Positions 4,891 to 13,227 of a stretch of 64,000 nt of DNA are shown here, in pieces. The notes beneath the pieces were generated by a model. It had not been told where the DNA came from. It ran no database searches and was given only the letters and a program-made list of their open reading frames with translations. The translations under genes and the position numbers were made by a program. The stretch covers positions 1 to 64,000 of the forward strand of contig NZ_JAAYXO010000117.1 in NCBI RefSeq assembly GCF_012515855.1. Direction: 5' to 3'. Position 1 is the first letter of the stretch. Every line of letters starts with the position of its first letter. This DNA comes from Gordonia sp. (in: high G+C Gram-positive bacteria) (lineage in GTDB: Bacteria > Actinomycetota > Actinomycetes > Mycobacteriales > Mycobacteriaceae).

Positions 4891-5078
4891 GGCGATCGGC
4901 CCCTTTCAACGCTTGTCACCAGACTAAGCACAGCGATCGGTTCGTGGGCGGCCGGGGTCGCTTCGTTCCGGAAGTGGGTTCGGCGAACTCGGGCGGCGAC
5001 GTCGAGTGGATCGATCGACCCAGACGGCCGTCGGTCAGTCGGCTGAGTTGTCGCAGGCGTCGACTACTGTCCGGGATC

Positions 5079-6401
5079 ATGCCTTGGACTCAGGAACGGG
5101 TGCTCGCCGTCGCCCCGGACGCCGCCTCGATGTCGGCAGGCCGCACACTGGCGAAGCCCGGTCCGTGGTCCGGCACCGGCTGCAACGAGTCGTTGCTGTG
5201 GGGGTCGTGCCAGGGCAGCGGAAAGAAGCCGTACCAGGTCAGCATCGACCTCAACGGCCCCGCGTACAAGTGCTCGTGCCCGAGCCGCAAGTTTCCGTGC
5301 AAGCATGCGATCGCCCTCCTGCTCCTCTGGTCGGAGGGTGTGGTCGGTGACGGCACGGCGGCCGACTTCGCCGCCGACTGGGCAGGCGCGCGCAGCCGGC
5401 GCACCGCGTCGACCGGCACTGCGGCCGCCGATGTTTCTCCCGCCGCCGCGCCCGACCCCGCAGCCCGGGCGGCTCGTCGAGCCGAACGCGCCGCGAAGAT
5501 GGACGCGGGCGTCGACGAGTTCTCTCGCTGGTTGTCGGACCTGATGCGCGCCGGCCTGGCCGATGCGATGCGGCGACCGGACGCGTGGTGGGAGGCGGCC
5601 GCCGCACGCTTGGTCGACGCCCAGCTTCCGGGCCTCGCCGAACGCGTTCGGGACACCGCCGGTGACATCACCCACGGCGATCTCGCGCCCGCAGATCTCC
5701 TCGAACGGACCGGTGTGTGGTGGACCATGGCACGCGGATGGACGCGCCGCGAAAGCCTGGCACCCGCCTTGCAGGCCGACCTGCAGACCGCTCTCGGCTG
5801 GCCGATTCCGACGGCCGAGGTACGCGCGGGAGAGCTTCGCGAGGGCGTCTGGATCGTCGTCGGATCGCATCGCACCGAGATCGGGCGCCTCGCTCAGCAG
5901 CGCACCTGGCTGCGGCCGGCGACCATCGACGGCGACCCCGAGTTCGTCGTCGTCCTCGAGACCGCGGGACCGGGGCAGTCGCTCGACGTCCCGCAGTTGG
6001 CCGGCGCTCGGGTGCGCGCGACGCTGGGCGTCTATCCCGGGTCAGCGCCCCGACGGGTCTTGTTCACCGAACCTCCGGCACCGGAACCGACACCGGCGGG
6101 ATCGCGACTGGGGCCGGGCACCACGCTCGCTGCGGCGTTCGCCGGCGCGGCCGATCATGTGGCGCGGGTCCCGTGGCGCGATCTGTATCCCGTGGTCCTC
6201 GACGATGTCGCCCTCGGCGGCCCCGACTGCGACCACCTGGTCGACCCGAACGGTTCCGCCGTGCCGCTGGTCGCGGACACCCCGACGAAAGCGCTCTCCG
6301 CGGTGACCGGCGGCCGTGCCGACCAGGTGTTCGGGGAGCTCGACGGCGGTCGATTCCGGGTCCTCACGGTGCTGGCCGACGGTGAGGTGACGCCGCTGTG
6401 A
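5079..6401 (+). CDS. SWIM zinc-finger domain protein (first gene of five-gene cluster)
   Basis: CxCx(n)CxH motif YKCSCPSRKFPCKHAIALLLLW; ATG 5079 chosen within longer ORF 4944-6401. Confidence 0.85.
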   Translation: MPWTQERVLAVAPDAASMSAGRTLAKPGPWSGTGCNESLLWGSCQGSGKKPYQVSIDLNGPAYKCSCPSRKFPCKHAIALLLLWSEGVVGDGTAADFAADWAGARSRRTASTGTAAADVSPAAAPDPAARAARRAERAAKMDAGVDEFSRWLSDLMRAGLADAMRRPDAWWEAAAARLVDAQLPGLAERVRDTAGDITHGDLAPADLLERTGVWWTMARGWTRRESLAPALQADLQTALGWPIPTAEVRAGELREGVWIVVGSHRTEIGRLAQQRTWLRPATIDGDPEFVVVLETAGPGQSLDVPQLAGARVRATLGVYPGSAPRRVLFTEPPAPEPTPAGSRLGPGTTLAAAFAGAADHVARVPWRDLYPVVLDDVALGGPDCDHLVDPNGSAVPLVADTPTKALSAVTGGRADQVFGELDGGRFRVLTVLADGEVTPL

Positions 6402-7897
6402 GCCTCCCCGATTCCGCTGCTGTCGAACGCTGGCGCCGAGACCTGCTGTCGGCCGCGATCCTCGGCACCGACCGACGTCCATTCCCGGACTCGCCCTTCG
6501 CCGACACCGCGTCCGGCCCGCCCGACGACGAGGTGCTGGCGCGGGTCGCGGTGGCCGCCGCACTGGTTCGCGCGGGTCGACGGCCGACGGTCGCCGACCC
6601 GGTGACACCGGCCACGGCCGAGTCCTCGCCGTACGCACCCCCATCGGCAATCGAACTCCTCGGCGTCTTGATCGACGCGCCGCCCATCGCGCGCGAGGTC
6701 CGGATCCCGCTCCTGAACCGCTGGCTCCAGACCGCGGCCGACCGCGACGCTGTGGTGCCGCCGCGGTTTCTGCCGACGCTGATCGCCCTCGCCGGCACCG
6801 CGCCCGAGCTCCTGCCGAGCCTCCAGCGGGCTTGGGGTCGGCGCGGAGACTGGCTCGCCGAGAAGTCCGGAACCGCCGCGCGGCCGAGCACACCGGACGC
6901 GGCGGACCTGGGTCGCGACTGGGCTCGGTTGCGCACCACGGATGCGGTCGACGCCTTGGCCGCGCTGCGTGAGGGCGACCCGCACGGCGCGCGTGAACTC
7001 ACCGCCGCCCATTGGTCCGAGCTGCCCGCAGCGCTCAAGGAACGGGTTCTCGAGTCGTGGCGGGTCGGGTTGTCCACCGCCGACGAGCCGTTCCTCGACG
7101 CCCTCCTCGACGAGCGCTCGGCGCGTGTCCGCGATGCCGCGCGAGCGCTCCTGCGCGGGCTCCCGACCAGCGCCTTCGGCACCCGGATGGCCGGCCGACT
7201 AGCACCGTTGCTGACCGTCGAGCGTGCGCGCGTCTTCGCCTCGAACACACGGATCACCGTCCTCGCTCCGACCGTGCTCGACGACGCCGCGACACGCGAC
7301 GGCCTGGCAGGCGTTGCCACGGCCGCCGACCGCGCCGCATCCTTGCAGACCGTCCTCACGGCCGCGCCCTTGCGGGCGTGGTGCGAGGCCACCGGCCTGT
7401 CCGTCGAGCGGATCGTCGCGGCGGTCCGCGACGACGACGCCGTGCTCGGCGCGCTGATCCGCGCGACCACCGACCAGCGGAACACCGAATGGGCCCGCGC
7501 GCTGCTGTCGGTGCGGCGCGACCCGAGCCTCATCCGGACCCTGCCCGACCACGAACGCGAGCAGTACCTGCTTCGGCTGCTTCCGACCGACACCGACGTC
7601 GGGTTCCGCGAGCTGCTCGGGCTGGCGGGCGCGCCGTGGAGCCCGCCGATCGCCGACGCGATCCTGGCGCGGGTCACCCGCCCCACGCCGAGGGGCCGGT
7701 CGAGCCACGTCCCGCTCCTGCAGATCCATCATGCGACACGCTTCCCCGCCGAGAGCGTGCCGCGCATCCGCGAGGTCCTCGCCCGCGCCGAACTCCCCGG
7801 CGCCGATGTCGAGATCTCCGAACGCCTGCGGCGCGTGCTGACCACCGCCGTCACCTACCACTCCTTCGACCGTTCCATCCAGGAGGCTTTCTCATGA
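6398..7897 (+). CDS. DUF5691-like protein
   Basis: Long ORF, GTG start overlapping the previous stop by 4 nt; family assigned from neighbourhood and general resemblance only. Confidence 0.65.
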   Translation: MSLPDSAAVERWRRDLLSAAILGTDRRPFPDSPFADTASGPPDDEVLARVAVAAALVRAGRRPTVADPVTPATAESSPYAPPSAIELLGVLIDAPPIAREVRIPLLNRWLQTAADRDAVVPPRFLPTLIALAGTAPELLPSLQRAWGRRGDWLAEKSGTAARPSTPDAADLGRDWARLRTTDAVDALAALREGDPHGARELTAAHWSELPAALKERVLESWRVGLSTADEPFLDALLDERSARVRDAARALLRGLPTSAFGTRMAGRLAPLLTVERARVFASNTRITVLAPTVLDDAATRDGLAGVATAADRAASLQTVLTAAPLRAWCEATGLSVERIVAAVRDDDAVLGALIRATTDQRNTEWARALLSVRRDPSLIRTLPDHEREQYLLRLLPTDTDVGFRELLGLAGAPWSPPIADAILARVTRPTPRGRSSHVPLLQIHHATRFPAESVPRIREVLARAELPGADVEISERLRRVLTTAVTYHSFDRSIQEAFS

Positions 7898-9045
7898 CCG
7901 GATCTCCCACTACCGAGACGACTCCCGCCGCCGACACTCCCGGCGGCACCCCGTCGGGCGTCCTGCGCGCCCATGCCGAGCACGAGTACGCAGCCGAACT
8001 CGCGGCGCTACAGGCCGTGGACGACCGCCCCCGCCCACCGCGCTGGTCGATGTCGCCCTGGGCGGTGACCACCTATCTGCTGGGCGGCACCCTCGCCGAC
8101 GGCACGGTCATCACCCCCAAGTACATCGGCAGCCGCAGGCTCATGGAGATCGCAGTAGCCTCGCTCGCAACCGATCGCGCGCTCCTGCTGCTCGGCGTGC
8201 CGGGCACCGCGAAGTCTTGGGTCAGCGAGCATCTGGCGGCCGCTGTCAGCGGCGATTCCACGCGCGTGGTCCAGGGAACCGCGGGTACCACCGAGGAGGC
8301 GGTCCGGTACGGCTGGAACTACGCCTCGCTCCTGGCCTCCGGCCCGTCCGAGAGCGCCCTGGTCCCCGGTCCGGTGATGCGCGCGATGAACGCCGGATCC
8401 ATCGCCCGGATCGAGGAACTGACCCGCATCCCCGCCGACGTGCAGGACTCGCTGATCACCATCCTGTCGGAGAAGACCCTCCCGATCCCCGAACTCGACA
8501 GCGAGGTCCAGGCGCAACGCGGTTTCAATGTGATCGCGACCGCCAACGACCGCGACAAGGGCGTCAACGACCTCTCCAGCGCACTGCGCCGCCGGTTCAC
8601 CACGGTGGTGCTCCCCCTGCCCGACTCGCTCGACGACGAGGTCTCGATCGTCACCCAGCGCGTCGCGAGCCTGGGAGCCTCCCTCGAACTGCCCGCCGAC
8701 CTGGAGTCGCTGAGCGAGATCCGCCGGGTGGTGACCGTGATGCGCGAGCTGCGCGGCGGGGTGACCGCCGACGGTCGGACCACCATCAAGTCGCCCAGTT
8801 CCACGCTCTCGACCGCCGAGGCCATCTCGGTGGTCACCAGCGGGTTGAGTCTGGCCGCGCACTTCGGTGACGGCGTCGTCGGTGCGCACGACGTCGCGGC
8901 CGGCCTGCTGGGCGCCGTGGTGAAGGACCCCGTCCAGGACTCGGTGATCTGGGACGAGTACCTGGAGACGGTGGTGCGCGGACGCCCCGAATGGGACGAC
9001 CTCTACCGTGCCTGCCGCGACCTGGGCACCGGCGCACCGCGATGA
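7894..9045 (+). CDS. MoxR/RavA-type AAA+ ATPase
   Basis: Walker A LLLGVPGTAKSW, sensor-1 NVIATANDRDKGVNDL, RRRF; ATG overlaps previous stop by 4 nt. Confidence 0.9.
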   Translation: MTGSPTTETTPAADTPGGTPSGVLRAHAEHEYAAELAALQAVDDRPRPPRWSMSPWAVTTYLLGGTLADGTVITPKYIGSRRLMEIAVASLATDRALLLLGVPGTAKSWVSEHLAAAVSGDSTRVVQGTAGTTEEAVRYGWNYASLLASGPSESALVPGPVMRAMNAGSIARIEELTRIPADVQDSLITILSEKTLPIPELDSEVQAQRGFNVIATANDRDKGVNDLSSALRRRFTTVVLPLPDSLDDEVSIVTQRVASLGASLELPADLESLSEIRRVVTVMRELRGGVTADGRTTIKSPSSTLSTAEAISVVTSGLSLAAHFGDGVVGAHDVAAGLLGAVVKDPVQDSVIWDEYLETVVRGRPEWDDLYRACRDLGTGAPR

Positions 9046-11357
9046 CGGTGGCCGCGACCGTCTCGATCCTCGGTATTCGCCACCATGGTCCGGGCTCGGC
9101 ACAATCGGTCGCCGAAGCCTTGGACCAGCTCTCACCGCAGTACGTCCTGGTGGAAGGGCCGGGCGAACTCACCCCGATCCTGCCGTTCCTCGCCGACCCG
9201 GACACCCGGCCACCGATCGCCGGCCTGGTGTACGACGCCGCAGATCCGAGCCGGGCGTCGTTCTACCCTCTCGCCGCCTTCTCCCCCGAATGGGTCGCGA
9301 CCCGGTGGGCCCTCGCCCGCGACGTGCCCGTCGAATGGGCCGACCTTCCGGCGACCAACCAGCTCGCCCTCCGCGCGGCCGTCGACGGGGCTGGACGCCT
9401 GGCCGCCGACGAGGCCTCCCAGCCGACCGAGCGCGTGGTCGATCCGATCGCCGCGCTCGCCTCGGCCGCGGGCTACGACGAGCCCGAGCGCTGGTGGGAG
9501 GATGCCGTCGAGCACGACCGCCGCGGGAGCACTCCGTCCGACGCGACCGACCGGTTCGATGCCGTCCGCGAGGCCGTCGCCGAGCTCCGCGCCGACGAGC
9601 CCGCCGCCCGGCCGCTGGTCGACGACGCCAAGGTGCTCGACCTCGACGCCGCTGCTCAAGCCCTCGGTCGGGCGATGACCGGGGTCCGCGAGGCCGCGAT
9701 GCGCAAGGCCCTCCGCGCCGCCGTCAAGGCCGGCCACCAGCGGATCGCCGTGGTCTGCGGCGCGTGGCACGCGCCGGCACTCGACCCGGCGACGATGCCG
9801 TCGGCCGCTTCCGACAACCGCCTGCTGCGCGGCCTGCCGAAGACCAAGGTCGCCGCGGCGTGGGTGCCGTGGACCGCGACCCGACTGAGCCAGTGGTCCG
9901 GCTACGGGGCGGGCGTCGCCTCGCCCGGCTGGTATCGGCATCTGTTCGACGCCCGCCGAAACGGGTTGGACACCGGGGAGGCCGCAGCCTCGTGGCTGGT
10001 CCTGGTGGCCCGGGAACTCCGCGAGCAGGGCCGCCCGGCCTCACCGGCGTCGGTGGTCGACGCCGTTCGACTGGCGGAGACGCTGGCGACGCTGCGCGGC
10101 CGGCCGCATCCCGGGCTGAGCGAACTCGACGATGCCGCGCTCGCCGTGCTGGCCGACGGCGATGCCACGCCGCTGAGCCTGGTGCACCGGAGCCTGGTGG
10201 TCGGCACCGACCTCGGCGCAGTCCCCTCCTCGGCCCCGATGGTCCCGTTGGCGGCCGACCTGCAGCGTCAGCAGAAGAGCTGCCGGCTTCGCCCGGCCGC
10301 CGTCGCGAAGTCGGTCCTCCTCGATCTCCGCACCGACGCGGGCCGCGCCAAATCGGTGCTCCTGCACCGCCTGCTGGTCCTCGGCATCGACTGGGGCGTA
10401 CCCGGCGAGACGGGTCGGACCACCGGCACCTTCAAGGAGGCGTGGGAACTCGAATGGGATCCGGCGATGGCGGTGTCGGTGGTCGAAGCGTCGGTCTATG
10501 GGACGACGATCGAATCCGCGGCGACGTCGAAGGTCGCTGCCCAGGCCGACGCGGCCACCGATCTCGCGCGGTTGTCGGAGTTGATCGACCGGTGTCTGCT
10601 CGCCGACCTGCCGACGACCCACGTGGTCGAGGCCCTCGCCGAGCGCGCCGCCGCGCACACCGACGTGCCCGAACTCCTGTCCGCGATCGAACCGTTGGCG
10701 CGCGTGTGTCGCTACGGCAACGTCCGGCAGATGGCCACCGACGACGTCCGCTCGGTGCTCGACCAGACGGCCGTCCGTGCCTGCCTCGGGCTGCCGACGG
10801 CGGCCACCGCGTTGAGCGCCGACGCCGCTATCGCGCTGCGTGCCGCGGTGGAGTCGGCGCATCGCGGCCTGATGCTCCTCGACGACCCGACGCTCGCCGA
10901 CTACTGGTTCGCGGCGCTCCGGGAGGTGGCCGACCACGACCGGATCCCGGGTGCGCTGGTCGGTCGTGCCACCCGGATGCTGCTCGACGCCGATCGCCTC
11001 GACCGCGACGACGCCCGCCGACGACTCAGCCGTGCACTGTCCACAGCGGGCGATCCCGTGGATGCCGCCGGGTGGCTCGACGGCTTCCTCGCGGGCGATG
11101 CCCTCGTCCTGATCCACGACGCCGCGCTCCTCGCGGTGATCGACGAATGGATGTCGGAGGTGGTCACCGACGTGTTCGACGACCTGCTGCCGCTGTTGCG
11201 TCGAACGTTCGCGGAGTTCACCAGGGCCGAACGACGAATCATCGGGCGATCACTGTCCCGGGGTCCGAGCGTCGACCACGGCCCGGTACTCGACCTGGCA
11301 CAGGCGAGGCCCGCAATCGGCGCCGTCGCCCGACTGATCGGATGGGAGATCGCATGA
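9042..11357 (+). CDS. DUF5682-like protein, possible TraB/TIKI/ChaN-like fold
   Basis: N-terminal ILGIRHHGPGSAQSVAEALDQLSPQYVLVEGP and downstream RIAVVCGAWHAPAL; ATG overlaps previous stop by 4 nt. Confidence 0.75.
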   Translation: MTVAATVSILGIRHHGPGSAQSVAEALDQLSPQYVLVEGPGELTPILPFLADPDTRPPIAGLVYDAADPSRASFYPLAAFSPEWVATRWALARDVPVEWADLPATNQLALRAAVDGAGRLAADEASQPTERVVDPIAALASAAGYDEPERWWEDAVEHDRRGSTPSDATDRFDAVREAVAELRADEPAARPLVDDAKVLDLDAAAQALGRAMTGVREAAMRKALRAAVKAGHQRIAVVCGAWHAPALDPATMPSAASDNRLLRGLPKTKVAAAWVPWTATRLSQWSGYGAGVASPGWYRHLFDARRNGLDTGEAAASWLVLVARELREQGRPASPASVVDAVRLAETLATLRGRPHPGLSELDDAALAVLADGDATPLSLVHRSLVVGTDLGAVPSSAPMVPLAADLQRQQKSCRLRPAAVAKSVLLDLRTDAGRAKSVLLHRLLVLGIDWGVPGETGRTTGTFKEAWELEWDPAMAVSVVEASVYGTTIESAATSKVAAQADAATDLARLSELIDRCLLADLPTTHVVEALAERAAAHTDVPELLSAIEPLARVCRYGNVRQMATDDVRSVLDQTAVRACLGLPTAATALSADAAIALRAAVESAHRGLMLLDDPTLADYWFAALREVADHDRIPGALVGRATRMLLDADRLDRDDARRRLSRALSTAGDPVDAAGWLDGFLAGDALVLIHDAALLAVIDEWMSEVVTDVFDDLLPLLRRTFAEFTRAERRIIGRSLSRGPSVDHGPVLDLAQARPAIGAVARLIGWEIA

Positions 11358-12526
11358 GCTCGCAGGACGAGGACCGGCTGACCCGCTGGCGCCTGGTGCT
11401 CGGCGGCGGGGACGCCGATGGCATCGACGGAGAGAACGGTGGCGGCATCGATCTGTCGAAGGCCGACGCCGCGCGCGACCGGGTGCTCGGCGAACTCTAC
11501 GACGGCCCACGTCGCGGCGGTCTCGGCGGATCGCAGCCGCGGGTGGCGCGCTGGCTCGGCGACATCCGGACGTACTTCCCGTCGTCGGTGGTCCAGGTGA
11601 TGCAGGCCGACGCGATGGACCGCCTCGGCCTGAAGCAGATGCTGCTGGAGCCCGAGTTGATGGCGGCCGTCCAGCCGGACGTCGCCCTGGTGAGCACCCT
11701 CATCACCCTGAACCAGGTGATGGACGAGCAGTCGCGCGAGACCGCCCGACACGTGGTCCGACAGGTGACCGATCAGTTGGAGGAACGGTTGCGCCGCGCG
11801 ACGGTGCAGGCGGTCACCGGCGCGGTGGACCGATCGTCGCGCACCAGCCGTCCGCGCCCGGCAGACATCGACTGGAACCGGACGATCACGGCCAACCTCA
11901 AGCACTACCAGCCGGACTATCGCACGGTGATCCCCGAGCGGCTGGTGGGCTACGCCCGCCGCCAGTCGCAGGTCCAGCGCGACATCATCCTGTGCATCGA
12001 CCAGTCCGGGTCGATGGCGGAGTCGGTGGTGTTCGCCAGCGTGTTCGGCGCCGTCCTGGCGTCGCTGCGGTCGGTGCGGACGCGGCTGGTGGTCTTCGAC
12101 ACCGAGGTGGTGGATCTGACCGACGAGATGCAGGATCCCGTCGACATCCTGTTCGGGGTCCAGCTCGGCGGCGGCACCGACATCAACCGCGCGGTCACTT
12201 ACTGTCAGTCGCTCATCGAGCGGCCGGAGAACACGGTCTTCGTGCTGATCAGCGACCTGTTCGAGGGTGGAGTGGCCGAAGAACTGCTCGACCGGTCCCG
12301 CTCGATCGTCGCCTCCGGCGCCACGATGGTCTCGCTGCTGGCGCTGTCGGACTCCGGCACTCCCGCGTTCGACGCCGATCTCGCCGCCGAGCTGACCGGT
12401 CTGGGCGTGCCGTCGTTCGCGTGCACGCCCGACCTGTTCCCGGACCTGATGGCGGCAGCCATCGAGCATCGCGACGTCGCCGAGTGGGCGTCGAGCCGCG
12501 ACATCCCGGTGGCGGTGACGGACTAG
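11354..12526 (+). CDS. VWA domain protein (CoxE/ViaA-like)
   Basis: MIDAS motifs DQSGSM, GGGTDINRA, LISDLFEGG; ATG overlaps previous stop by 4 nt. Confidence 0.9.
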   Translation: MSSQDEDRLTRWRLVLGGGDADGIDGENGGGIDLSKADAARDRVLGELYDGPRRGGLGGSQPRVARWLGDIRTYFPSSVVQVMQADAMDRLGLKQMLLEPELMAAVQPDVALVSTLITLNQVMDEQSRETARHVVRQVTDQLEERLRRATVQAVTGAVDRSSRTSRPRPADIDWNRTITANLKHYQPDYRTVIPERLVGYARRQSQVQRDIILCIDQSGSMAESVVFASVFGAVLASLRSVRTRLVVFDTEVVDLTDEMQDPVDILFGVQLGGGTDINRAVTYCQSLIERPENTVFVLISDLFEGGVAEELLDRSRSIVASGATMVSLLALSDSGTPAFDADLAAELTGLGVPSFACTPDLFPDLMAAAIEHRDVAEWASSRDIPVAVTD

Positions 12527-13227
12527 GGTCGTGCGCCGTCGGCGTCGTCGTCGGTCGGATCTTCGGTCGGATCGATGCCCTCGTCGAGGGAATCCCACAG
12601 AATCCGTTCGTTGCCCTCGGTCGGAGCGGCTGTTCCAGCGGCCGCGGCGCGCTCCCGCTCGGCGAAGATCTGCCGTTCCAGGTCTTCTCGTCGGGCCGCC
12701 GGCGAGGAGTACTTGGACGACATGCCGCCCTGGTTGGCGGTACGCGTCATGAAGATCGCGCCGACGATCACGCAGATCGCCGAGACGATGACGACGTAGC
12801 CGGGCAGCGTGGTGACGGGAACACCATCGATGGCCGCACCGTCGCGGATGCCGTCGGCCATCTGGACGACGTAGAGGTTGTCCTCCCCCTCGGTCAGCAG
12901 CGAGATGGCCGGGAAGATCGCGAGCACCCCGCCCAGTGCGACGAGGATCGCGACGACGCGCAGCGCCCACCCGCGGACGGCGAACTGCGCGACGACCGCG
13001 GCGACCATGGCGAGCGCCACCGGCACCAGCCACGGACTCCACTGCGCACCGATGACCGTGACCTCGGATGCCGGTCCCAGGTCGGCGGCCACCAGCACGG
13101 TGGCCCAGGTCATGCGGGACGCGCTCCAGAGCCCGAGCGCGCCGAGCAGGATCAGGATGGAGGCGATGCCCTGCCAGCGGCGGTTGACCGGCGCGGGCTT
13201 CGCGTCGACGGATTCGGATGCGTTCAT
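12523..13227 (-). CDS. Trp biosynthesis-associated membrane protein (TIGR02234-like)
   Basis: Several hydrophobic helices; directly downstream of trpE. Confidence 0.85.
   Translation of the reverse strand: MNASESVDAKPAPVNRRWQGIASILILLGALGLWSASRMTWATVLVAADLGPASEVTVIGAQWSPWLVPVALAMVAAVVAQFAVRGWALRVVAILVALGGVLAIFPAISLLTEGEDNLYVVQMADGIRDGAAIDGVPVTTLPGYVVIVSAICVIVGAIFMTRTANQGGMSSKYSSPAARREDLERQIFAERERAAAAGTAAPTEGNERILWDSLDEGIDPTEDPTDDDADGARP

What the first reader, a model, noticed from the sequence alone, without database searches (positions are those of the whole stretch)
5079..12526. Five-gene SWIM / DUF5691-like / MoxR AAA+ / DUF5682-like / VWA cluster with a 4-nt overlap at every junction
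Seen: stops and starts overlap at 6398-6401, 7894-7897, 9042-9045 and 11354-11357, implying one translationally coupled unit. Established: MoxR/RavA ATPases with VWA partners form chaperone-like pairs (RavA-ViaA, NorQ-NorD), and MoxR-VWA modules have been proposed in bacterial conflict systems. Inference: the ATPase-VWA pair remodels or activates the DUF5682-like protein, with the SWIM protein as nucleic-acid or protein sensor. I know of no assigned function for this combination.
Basis: partly seen in the sequence, partly recalled or inferred. Interest (0 to 1): 0.85.

Follow-up and report, generated by a model that had tools for sequence, protein, structure and literature searches.

The report
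MoxR-VWA cluster around predicted TIKI hydrolase
A tight five-gene operon, carried into the tryptophan operon of a Gordonia-like bacterium, pairs an ATP-driven protein-remodelling machine with a protein that looks like an unrecognised enzyme of the TIKI hydrolase superfamily; E. coli carries a relative of it (yehL-yehM-yehP-yehQ) in nearly every strain, and I found no known function for it.

Summary
In detail: five same-strand genes (SWIM, DUF5691, MoxR AAA+, DUF5682, VWA_CoxE) with 4-nt overlaps at all four junctions. The combination is not unknown: MoxR-DUF5682-VWA are homologues of E. coli YehL-YehM-YehP (YehQ is a SWIM protein), a cluster in 5321 of 5426 complete E. coli genomes, and 'YehL' is a named MoxR subfamily. 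I found no published function. The window is a second architecture, with DUF5691, found in many phyla. New here: DUF5682 carries an invariant GxxH...E...R...GxxH signature, and the predicted fold of its N-terminal domain finds TIKI-superfamily proteins (viral TraB E=1.5e-4; BcR135 and ChaN among the top six PDB matches, not individually significant). DUF5682 and VWA are one polypeptide in three genomes. DUF5691 is HEAT-repeat-like and, in sampled genomes, occurs only with DUF5682 (18/18). The cluster sits antiparallel inside the trp operon; the nearest sister has an empty site and the gene tree nests it beside Microbacteriaceae, so it was acquired horizontally. Best explanation: a MoxR-VWA motor that docks on and switches or matures a TIKI-type hydrolase, with HEAT and SWIM proteins as adaptors. 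Substrate and biological role are unknown; phage defence is possible but poorly supported.

The parts
5079..6401 (+). SWIM zinc-finger protein, 440 aa; C65-x-C67-x6-C74-x-H76
   Evidence: Pfam SWIM E=1.8e-7; zinc ligands kept in 65-66 of 67 homologues; ATG 5079 agrees with homologue starts although the frame is open from GTG 4944
6398..7897 (+). DUF5691 protein, 499 aa, HEAT-repeat-like; fastest evolving member
   Evidence: PF18944 E=5.7e-86; 9 of 31 homologues hit HEAT_2, best 5.4e-5; mean pairwise identity 32% against 71% for MoxR
7894..9045 (+). MoxR-family AAA+ ATPase of the YehL subfamily, 383 aa
   Evidence: AAA_5 E=1e-38; 39% identity over 349 aa to E. coli YehL (215 bits), RavA only 23 bits; Walker A GxPGTAK, sensor-1 and arginine finger conserved, Walker B in the form RxEE in 67/67
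9042..11357 (+). DUF5682 protein, 771 aa: N-terminal alpha/beta TIKI-superfamily-like domain (about 1-330) plus a long, mainly helical C-terminal part
   Evidence: PF18934 E=1.5e-230; homologue of YehM; invariant H14, H15, E38, R216, E217, G240, H243 in 15 divergent members; AF2 pLDDT 91.4; TIKI-superfamily fold matches
9042..10031 (+). Predicted TIKI-type catalytic domain of DUF5682: G11-x-x-H14(H15), E38, R216-E217-x-x-M220, G240-x-x-H243
11354..12526 (+). VWA protein, CoxE-like, 390 aa, intact MIDAS (D216xSxS, T275, D301)
   Evidence: VWA_CoxE E=7e-51; 35% identity over 369 aa to YehP (228 bits) against 34 bits to ViaA; fused to the C-terminus of DUF5682 in L211, L212, L217
4072..4890 (-). 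trpC (indole-3-glycerol phosphate synthase), left border of the insertion, divergent from the cluster
   Evidence: IGPS E=1e-78
12523..13227 (-). Trp-operon-associated membrane protein gene, right border; its stop overlaps the VWA stop
   Evidence: Trp_oprn_chp E=4.5e-45

Best explanation
The cluster encodes an ATP-driven switch for a hydrolase. MoxR (YehL subfamily) forms a ring ATPase. The CoxE-like VWA protein is its co-chaperone and docks on the DUF5682 protein. DUF5682 has an N-terminal domain of the TIKI superfamily (TraB/ChaN/erythromycin-esterase-like hydrolases) with two GxxH motifs, a conserved Glu and a conserved Arg, and a helical C-terminal half that I take to be the docking part. 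ATP hydrolysis remodels DUF5682 so that its active site opens, or is matured, only when needed. The fast-evolving HEAT-like DUF5691 protein and the SWIM zinc-finger protein bring in the substrate or signal. Shown by computation: the genes, their coupling, homology to YehL/M/P, intact ATPase and MIDAS motifs, the DUF5682-VWA fusions, the TIKI-like signature and fold, HEAT-like repeats in DUF5691, horizontal arrival in the trp operon. Inferred: ring formation, catalytic activity, direction of control, adaptor roles. Unknown: substrate and trigger.
For: Conserved order across phyla and co-occurrence of DUF5691 with DUF5682. DUF5682-VWA single-polypeptide proteins in three genomes. Pairwise identities of the five proteins rise and fall together (r 0.79-0.89; partly shared phylogeny). 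H14, H15, E38, R216, E217 and H243 invariant between window-type and YehM-type proteins of 25-28% identity. R216 lies 27 residues before H243; in the TIKI protease RRSP the essential Arg lies 29 before its essential His (PMC6254334). Foldseek of the N-terminal domain: the only significant viral match is a TraB family protein (E=1.5e-4, prob 1.00); four of the 50 listed PDB rows, three of them in the top six, are BcR135 or ChaN, both named as TIKI superfamily in PMC6254334. Weak Pfam ChaN/Tiki matches in 3 of 15 members, the two examined lying on the second GxxH motif. MoxR and VWA motifs intact. Precedent: MoxR-VWA pairs remodel client proteins (PMC7159879; PMC3893208).
Against: No single PDB fold match is significant (best TIKI E=0.094, TM about 0.3); full-length DUF5682 found only helical matches; uncalibrated profile-profile scores against EreA and YbaP did not stand out from unrelated controls. 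The first Glu of the RRSP/Ere 2His/2Glu set has no clear counterpart. TIKI relatives can be inactive (PMT) or bind haem (ChaN). Direction of control is not shown. No biochemical data for any member were found.
Confidence: 0.5

Rival explanations
1. Maturation machine: MoxR and the CoxE-like VWA insert a metal or cofactor into DUF5682 (or fold it once), as NorQ-NorD and CoxD-CoxE do for their oxidases; DUF5682 is then constitutively active rather than switched.
For: The VWA protein matches VWA_CoxE best; MoxR's best bacterial matches in the PDB are NorQ chains, after the eukaryotic AAA+ protein midasin; a metal-dependent TIKI enzyme (Tiki) is described in PMC6254334.
Against: RRSP, a TIKI protease, works without metal. 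Does not explain the SWIM and DUF5691 proteins, which evolve fastest. CoxE similarity is shared by many MoxR partners (own knowledge).
Confidence: 0.25
2. Conflict (anti-phage or abortive) system of the MoxR-vWA ternary kind, with DUF5682 as ATP-gated effector protease and DUF5691/SWIM as invader sensors.
For: Patchy in the genus (14 of 41 genomes); horizontally acquired and lodged in a site that carries other cargo in relatives; found on plasmids; a yeh-type cluster lies beside restriction-modification genes on an Iodobacter plasmid; DUF5691 and SWIM evolve fastest; MoxR-vWA conflict systems are described (PMC7159879).
Against: Near-core in E. coli (5321 of 5426 genomes); conserved neighbours on both sides in Streptomyces; no PADLOC match of weight; no effector swapping, DUF5682 is constant; no recurrent defence neighbour seen in 80 loci; only a sub-threshold match to bpMoxR.
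Confidence: 0.17
3. DUF5682 keeps a TIKI fold but is not an enzyme: it is a scaffold or ligand (haem or other) binder that MoxR-VWA assembles into a larger complex.
For: ChaN binds haem cofacially (2g5g title) and PMT lacks the catalytic residues (PMC6254334); more than half of DUF5682 is outside the TIKI core.
Against: Both His positions, E38 and R216 are invariant across very divergent members, unlike a degenerate enzyme.
Confidence: 0.13

Closest known systems
E. coli yehL-yehM-yehP-yehQ cluster (YehL subfamily of MoxR ATPases)
   Same: MoxR, DUF5682 and VWA in the same order; 39%, 27% and 35% identity over 349, 543 and 369 aa; a SWIM protein in the operon
   Different: SWIM gene is last and its protein gave no match to the window SWIM family profile; the DUF4132 gene yehI lies upstream instead of DUF5691; DUF5691 absent from E. 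coli
RavA-ViaA, NorQ-NorD, CoxD-CoxE
   Same: MoxR AAA+ ATPase with adjacent VWA co-chaperone, intact Walker A and MIDAS
   Different: Other subfamilies: RavA 23 bits, ViaA 34 bits against 215 and 228 for YehL and YehP; no DUF5682 partner that I know of
MoxR-vWA ternary conflict systems (VMAP, iSTAND, FtsH, beta-propeller; PMC7159879)
   Same: MoxR + vWA + third component
   Different: Third component is DUF5682; no swapped effector domains on the VWA; the paper's text does not mention SWIM, TIKI or EreA
TIKI superfamily (Tiki, TraB/PrgY, ChaN, erythromycin esterase, RRSP)
   Same: GxxH, Glu, Arg, GxxH signature in order; fold matches
   Different: No curated Pfam assignment; large helical insert and C-terminal extension; beside MoxR-VWA in nearly all loci with enough flank

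Membership tests
YehL-type MoxR/VWA module | MoxR closest to YehL rather than RavA | tested here: met
   39%/215 bits to YehL against 23 bits to RavA
YehL-type MoxR/VWA module | Adjacent DUF5682 (YehM) and VWA (YehP) genes | tested here: met
YehL-type MoxR/VWA module | SWIM gene at the 3' end and DUF4132 gene upstream (E. coli form) | tested here: not met
   SWIM is first, DUF5691 in place of DUF4132; hence filed as a variant
TIKI superfamily (DUF5682) | Two GxxH motifs and a conserved Glu (definition recalled from memory; the related 2His/2Glu set is in PMC6254334) | tested here: met
   H14, E38, G240, H243 in 15/15 divergent members; G11 in 13/15
TIKI superfamily (DUF5682) | Conserved basic residue upstream of the second His | tested here: met
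   R216, 27 residues before H243, 15/15
TIKI superfamily (DUF5682) | First Glu of the 2His/2Glu set | tested here: inconclusive
   Position after G11 is Ile/Val; the role could be taken by another residue
TIKI superfamily (DUF5682) | TIKI alpha/beta fold | tested here: inconclusive
   TraB family E=1.5e-4 in the viral library; BcR135/ChaN at the top of PDB but E>0.05
TIKI superfamily (DUF5682) | Hydrolase activity | not testable with these tools
   needs protein
MoxR-vWA ternary conflict system | VMAP, iSTAND, FtsH or beta-propeller third component | tested here: not met
   none found by Pfam in any of the five proteins; bpMoxR only sub-threshold
MoxR-vWA ternary conflict system | Variable, swapped effector domains | tested here: not met
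   DUF5682 constant in all loci examined, but loci were found through DUF5682
Known anti-phage system | Match to PADLOC models | tested here: not met
   (only IetA at E=0.062)

The most novel reading that the evidence does not exclude
A widespread, previously unrecognised class of ATP-gated cytosolic TIKI-type proteases or hydrolases, in which a MoxR-VWA machine rather than a proteolytic AAA+ ring controls access to the active site, and HEAT/SWIM adaptors set specificity; E. coli YehLMPQ would be the laboratory model.
Probability: 0.35. Interest if true: 0.8.

Novelty: new variant of a known kind. Interest (0 to 1): 0.6.

Why it matters
A cluster present in almost every E. coli genome and in at least eight bacterial phyla appears to have no assigned function. 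Assigning its central protein to the TIKI hydrolase superfamily, with named catalytic candidates, makes it testable with E. coli knock-outs and point mutants. If right, it adds a new way of controlling a hydrolase with AAA+ energy and gives the YehL subfamily of MoxR ATPases its client.

Tried and rejected
Full-length Foldseek of DUF5682 against the PDB: only helical repeat matches, not used. hhalign of the DUF5682 N-domain with EreA and YbaP profiles: probabilities near zero, no better than MoxR, VWA, SWIM or DUF5691 controls, so not counted as evidence, although the GxxH and R..M/GxxH stretches fall in register. Profile searches of PDB sequences with DUF5682 and DUF5691: nothing of weight. 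Phage origin: one 'phage' record (MT835988.1) matches, but it is an unverified faecal scaffold that also holds MoxR and VWA, so probably bacterial; IMG/VR scans gave none. Recurrent extra neighbour gene: only Streptomyces synteny and scattered serine/threonine-kinase-like ORFs. Remnants of the cluster in relatives with other DNA at the trp site: none. Literature: no paper in the held library mentions DUF5682 or DUF5691, and the two that name two or more of the yeh genes are a genome announcement and a strain resource by their titles (not read). Invariance of H14/H15 in the 63-row alignment was not counted because those loci were found through that motif; the 15-row set was found otherwise.
Full report
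Observation. Five genes lie head to tail on the + strand at 5079-12526 and overlap by 4 nt at each junction: GTGA at 6398, ATGA at 7894, 9042 and 11354. Pfam gives SWIM, DUF5691, AAA_5 (MoxR), DUF5682 and VWA_CoxE, the two DUFs at E=5.7e-86 and 1.5e-230. No protein matches a PADLOC model meaningfully or passes an NCBIfam cut-off.

Where it sits. Left of the cluster, on the other strand, are trpC, a further gene in the trpB position, trpA and lgt; right of it, also on the other strand, are the Trp_oprn_chp membrane protein gene and trpE (the trpB assignment is from position). So 7.5 kb of DNA lies antiparallel inside the trp operon. The closest sister by TrpC (94%) has the empty site, with the Trp membrane gene and trpC about 90 bp apart, as have three further relatives checked; three relatives (G315, G302 and Gordonia zhenghanii, L037) carry the cluster at the same site; two others carry unrelated DNA there, one an UvrA-like ORF by eye. 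Of 41 genomes of the genus, 14 have a DUF5682 gene. A tree of DUF5682 puts the four trp-site copies in one clade (100/99) nested with Leifsonia, Microbacterium and Pseudoclavibacter (100/99 for the seven), whereas other Gordonia copies, at other loci, group with Williamsia and Mycobacterium (100/100). The cluster therefore arrived by horizontal transfer at least once, and the trp gap looks like a favoured landing site.

Relatives. In 48 of 86 loci all five genes keep the order SWIM-DUF5691-MoxR-DUF5682-VWA on one strand; in Streptomyces SWIM-DUF5691 is divergent; many shorter patterns are contig ends. Plasmid copies with the full order occur in Deinococcus and Rhizobium; the Methylosinus plasmid copy keeps the first four genes intact and a broken-up VWA. 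A few copies stand without detectable partners (L056, L089, L050), so separation occurs but is rare.

Known counterpart. E. coli K-12 has yehL (MoxR), yehM (DUF5682), yehP (VWA) and yehQ (SWIM) in a row, with the DUF4132 gene yehI upstream. MoxR, DUF5682 and VWA of the window are 39%, 27% and 35% identical to YehL, YehM and YehP, and far less like RavA and ViaA. YehL is one of seven named MoxR subfamilies (PMC3893208). yehLMPQ is present in 5321 of 5426 complete E. coli genomes. No paper found in the library searched gives it a function. Four architectures of the core were seen: the window type; the yeh type (DUF4132-MoxR-DUF5682-VWA-SWIM, also in Streptomyces and, without a clear SWIM call in every case, in Gordonia); MoxR followed by a single DUF5682-VWA fusion protein (L211, L212, L217); and VWA-MoxR-DUF5682 (L213, L216, L219). 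The fusions are the strongest computational sign that DUF5682 and VWA touch.

What DUF5682 is. Across 15 members down to 25% identity, R13, H14, H15, P17, E38, R216, E217, M220, G240 and H243 never vary; G11 is kept in 13 of 15. The order GxxH - E - R - GxxH is that of the TIKI superfamily as described for RRSP and relatives (PMC6254334; the two-GxxH wording is from memory), down to the spacing between the Arg and the second His (27 against 29). AlphaFold2 models the whole protein at pLDDT 91.4 and the N-terminal 330 residues at 88.1. Foldseek with the latter gives one significant viral match, a Marseillevirus TraB family protein (E=1.5e-4), and PDB matches led by a Tetrahymena complex IV chain of unknown kinship followed by BcR135 and ChaN. 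No PDB match is individually significant, and profile-profile scores did not separate TIKI families from controls. I put the TIKI assignment at about 0.75 and catalytic activity at about 0.6.

The other parts. MoxR has Walker A, sensor-1 and arginine finger, with an unusual invariant RxEE in place of the usual Walker B DE; VWA has a complete MIDAS; SWIM has its CxCx6CxH ligands. DUF5691 gives HEAT matches in 9 of 31 members (best 5.4e-5). Mean pairwise identity over 66 complete loci plus the window falls from MoxR 71% and VWA 62% through DUF5682 50% to SWIM 40% and DUF5691 32%, and the five rise and fall together (r 0.79-0.89). The motor is constrained and the putative adaptors drift, which fits recognition of varying partners but also simple loose constraint on a solenoid.

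Mechanism. I read it as motor (MoxR), coupler (VWA), client hydrolase (DUF5682), and two adaptors (DUF5691, SWIM). MoxR-VWA pairs elsewhere capture a peptide of a client and remodel it (PMC7159879). Whether the motor switches the hydrolase repeatedly or matures it once cannot be told from sequence. The conflict reading stays open because of the patchiness in Gordonia, the landing site and the plasmid copies, but the near-fixed presence in E. coli and the stable surroundings in Streptomyces argue for a general cellular role at least there.

Verdict. It is a DUF5691-bearing variant of the known but unexplained YehL-M-P module. The new point is that its central protein is probably a TIKI-superfamily hydrolase under MoxR-VWA control.

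Noticed in passing
window 4891-5078 and 12523-13227: The trp operon is split by the insertion: trpC-trpB-trpA are cut off from trpE and the Trp membrane gene, so trpC probably uses a promoter in the 188-bp divergent gap; the sister genome with the empty site has only about 90 bp there.
   Followed up: partly
L159:6952-9692, L160:7361-9299, L037:13440-14983, L157:14331-14904: The same trp gap carries other cargo in Gordonia relatives: an UvrA-like ORF (L159), an unknown gene (L160), a RelA/SpoT-like synthetase next to the cluster (L037); it looks like an insertion hotspot. Assignments by eye.
   Followed up: partly
window 8404-8418 (MoxR residues 171-175): Walker B motif is ARxEE instead of the usual hhDE, invariant at R, E, E in 67 of 67 homologues and EE also in YehL: a possible hallmark of the YehL subfamily.
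   Followed up: partly
L211, L212, L217: DUF5682-VWA fusion proteins of about 1100 aa or more preceded by MoxR, without SWIM or DUF5691 found nearby.
   Followed up: yes
L221 (MT835988.1): An 'unverified' Bacteriophage record from faeces holds MoxR-DUF5682-VWA in order and is probably a bacterial fragment filed as phage.
   Followed up: partly
L035: Iodobacter plasmid with a yeh-type cluster near transposase genes and type I restriction-modification genes.
   Followed up: no
L032: A conjugative IncF E. coli plasmid carries a copy of the chromosomal yehI-yehL-M-P-Q-yehR-btsSR-mlrA block.
   Followed up: no
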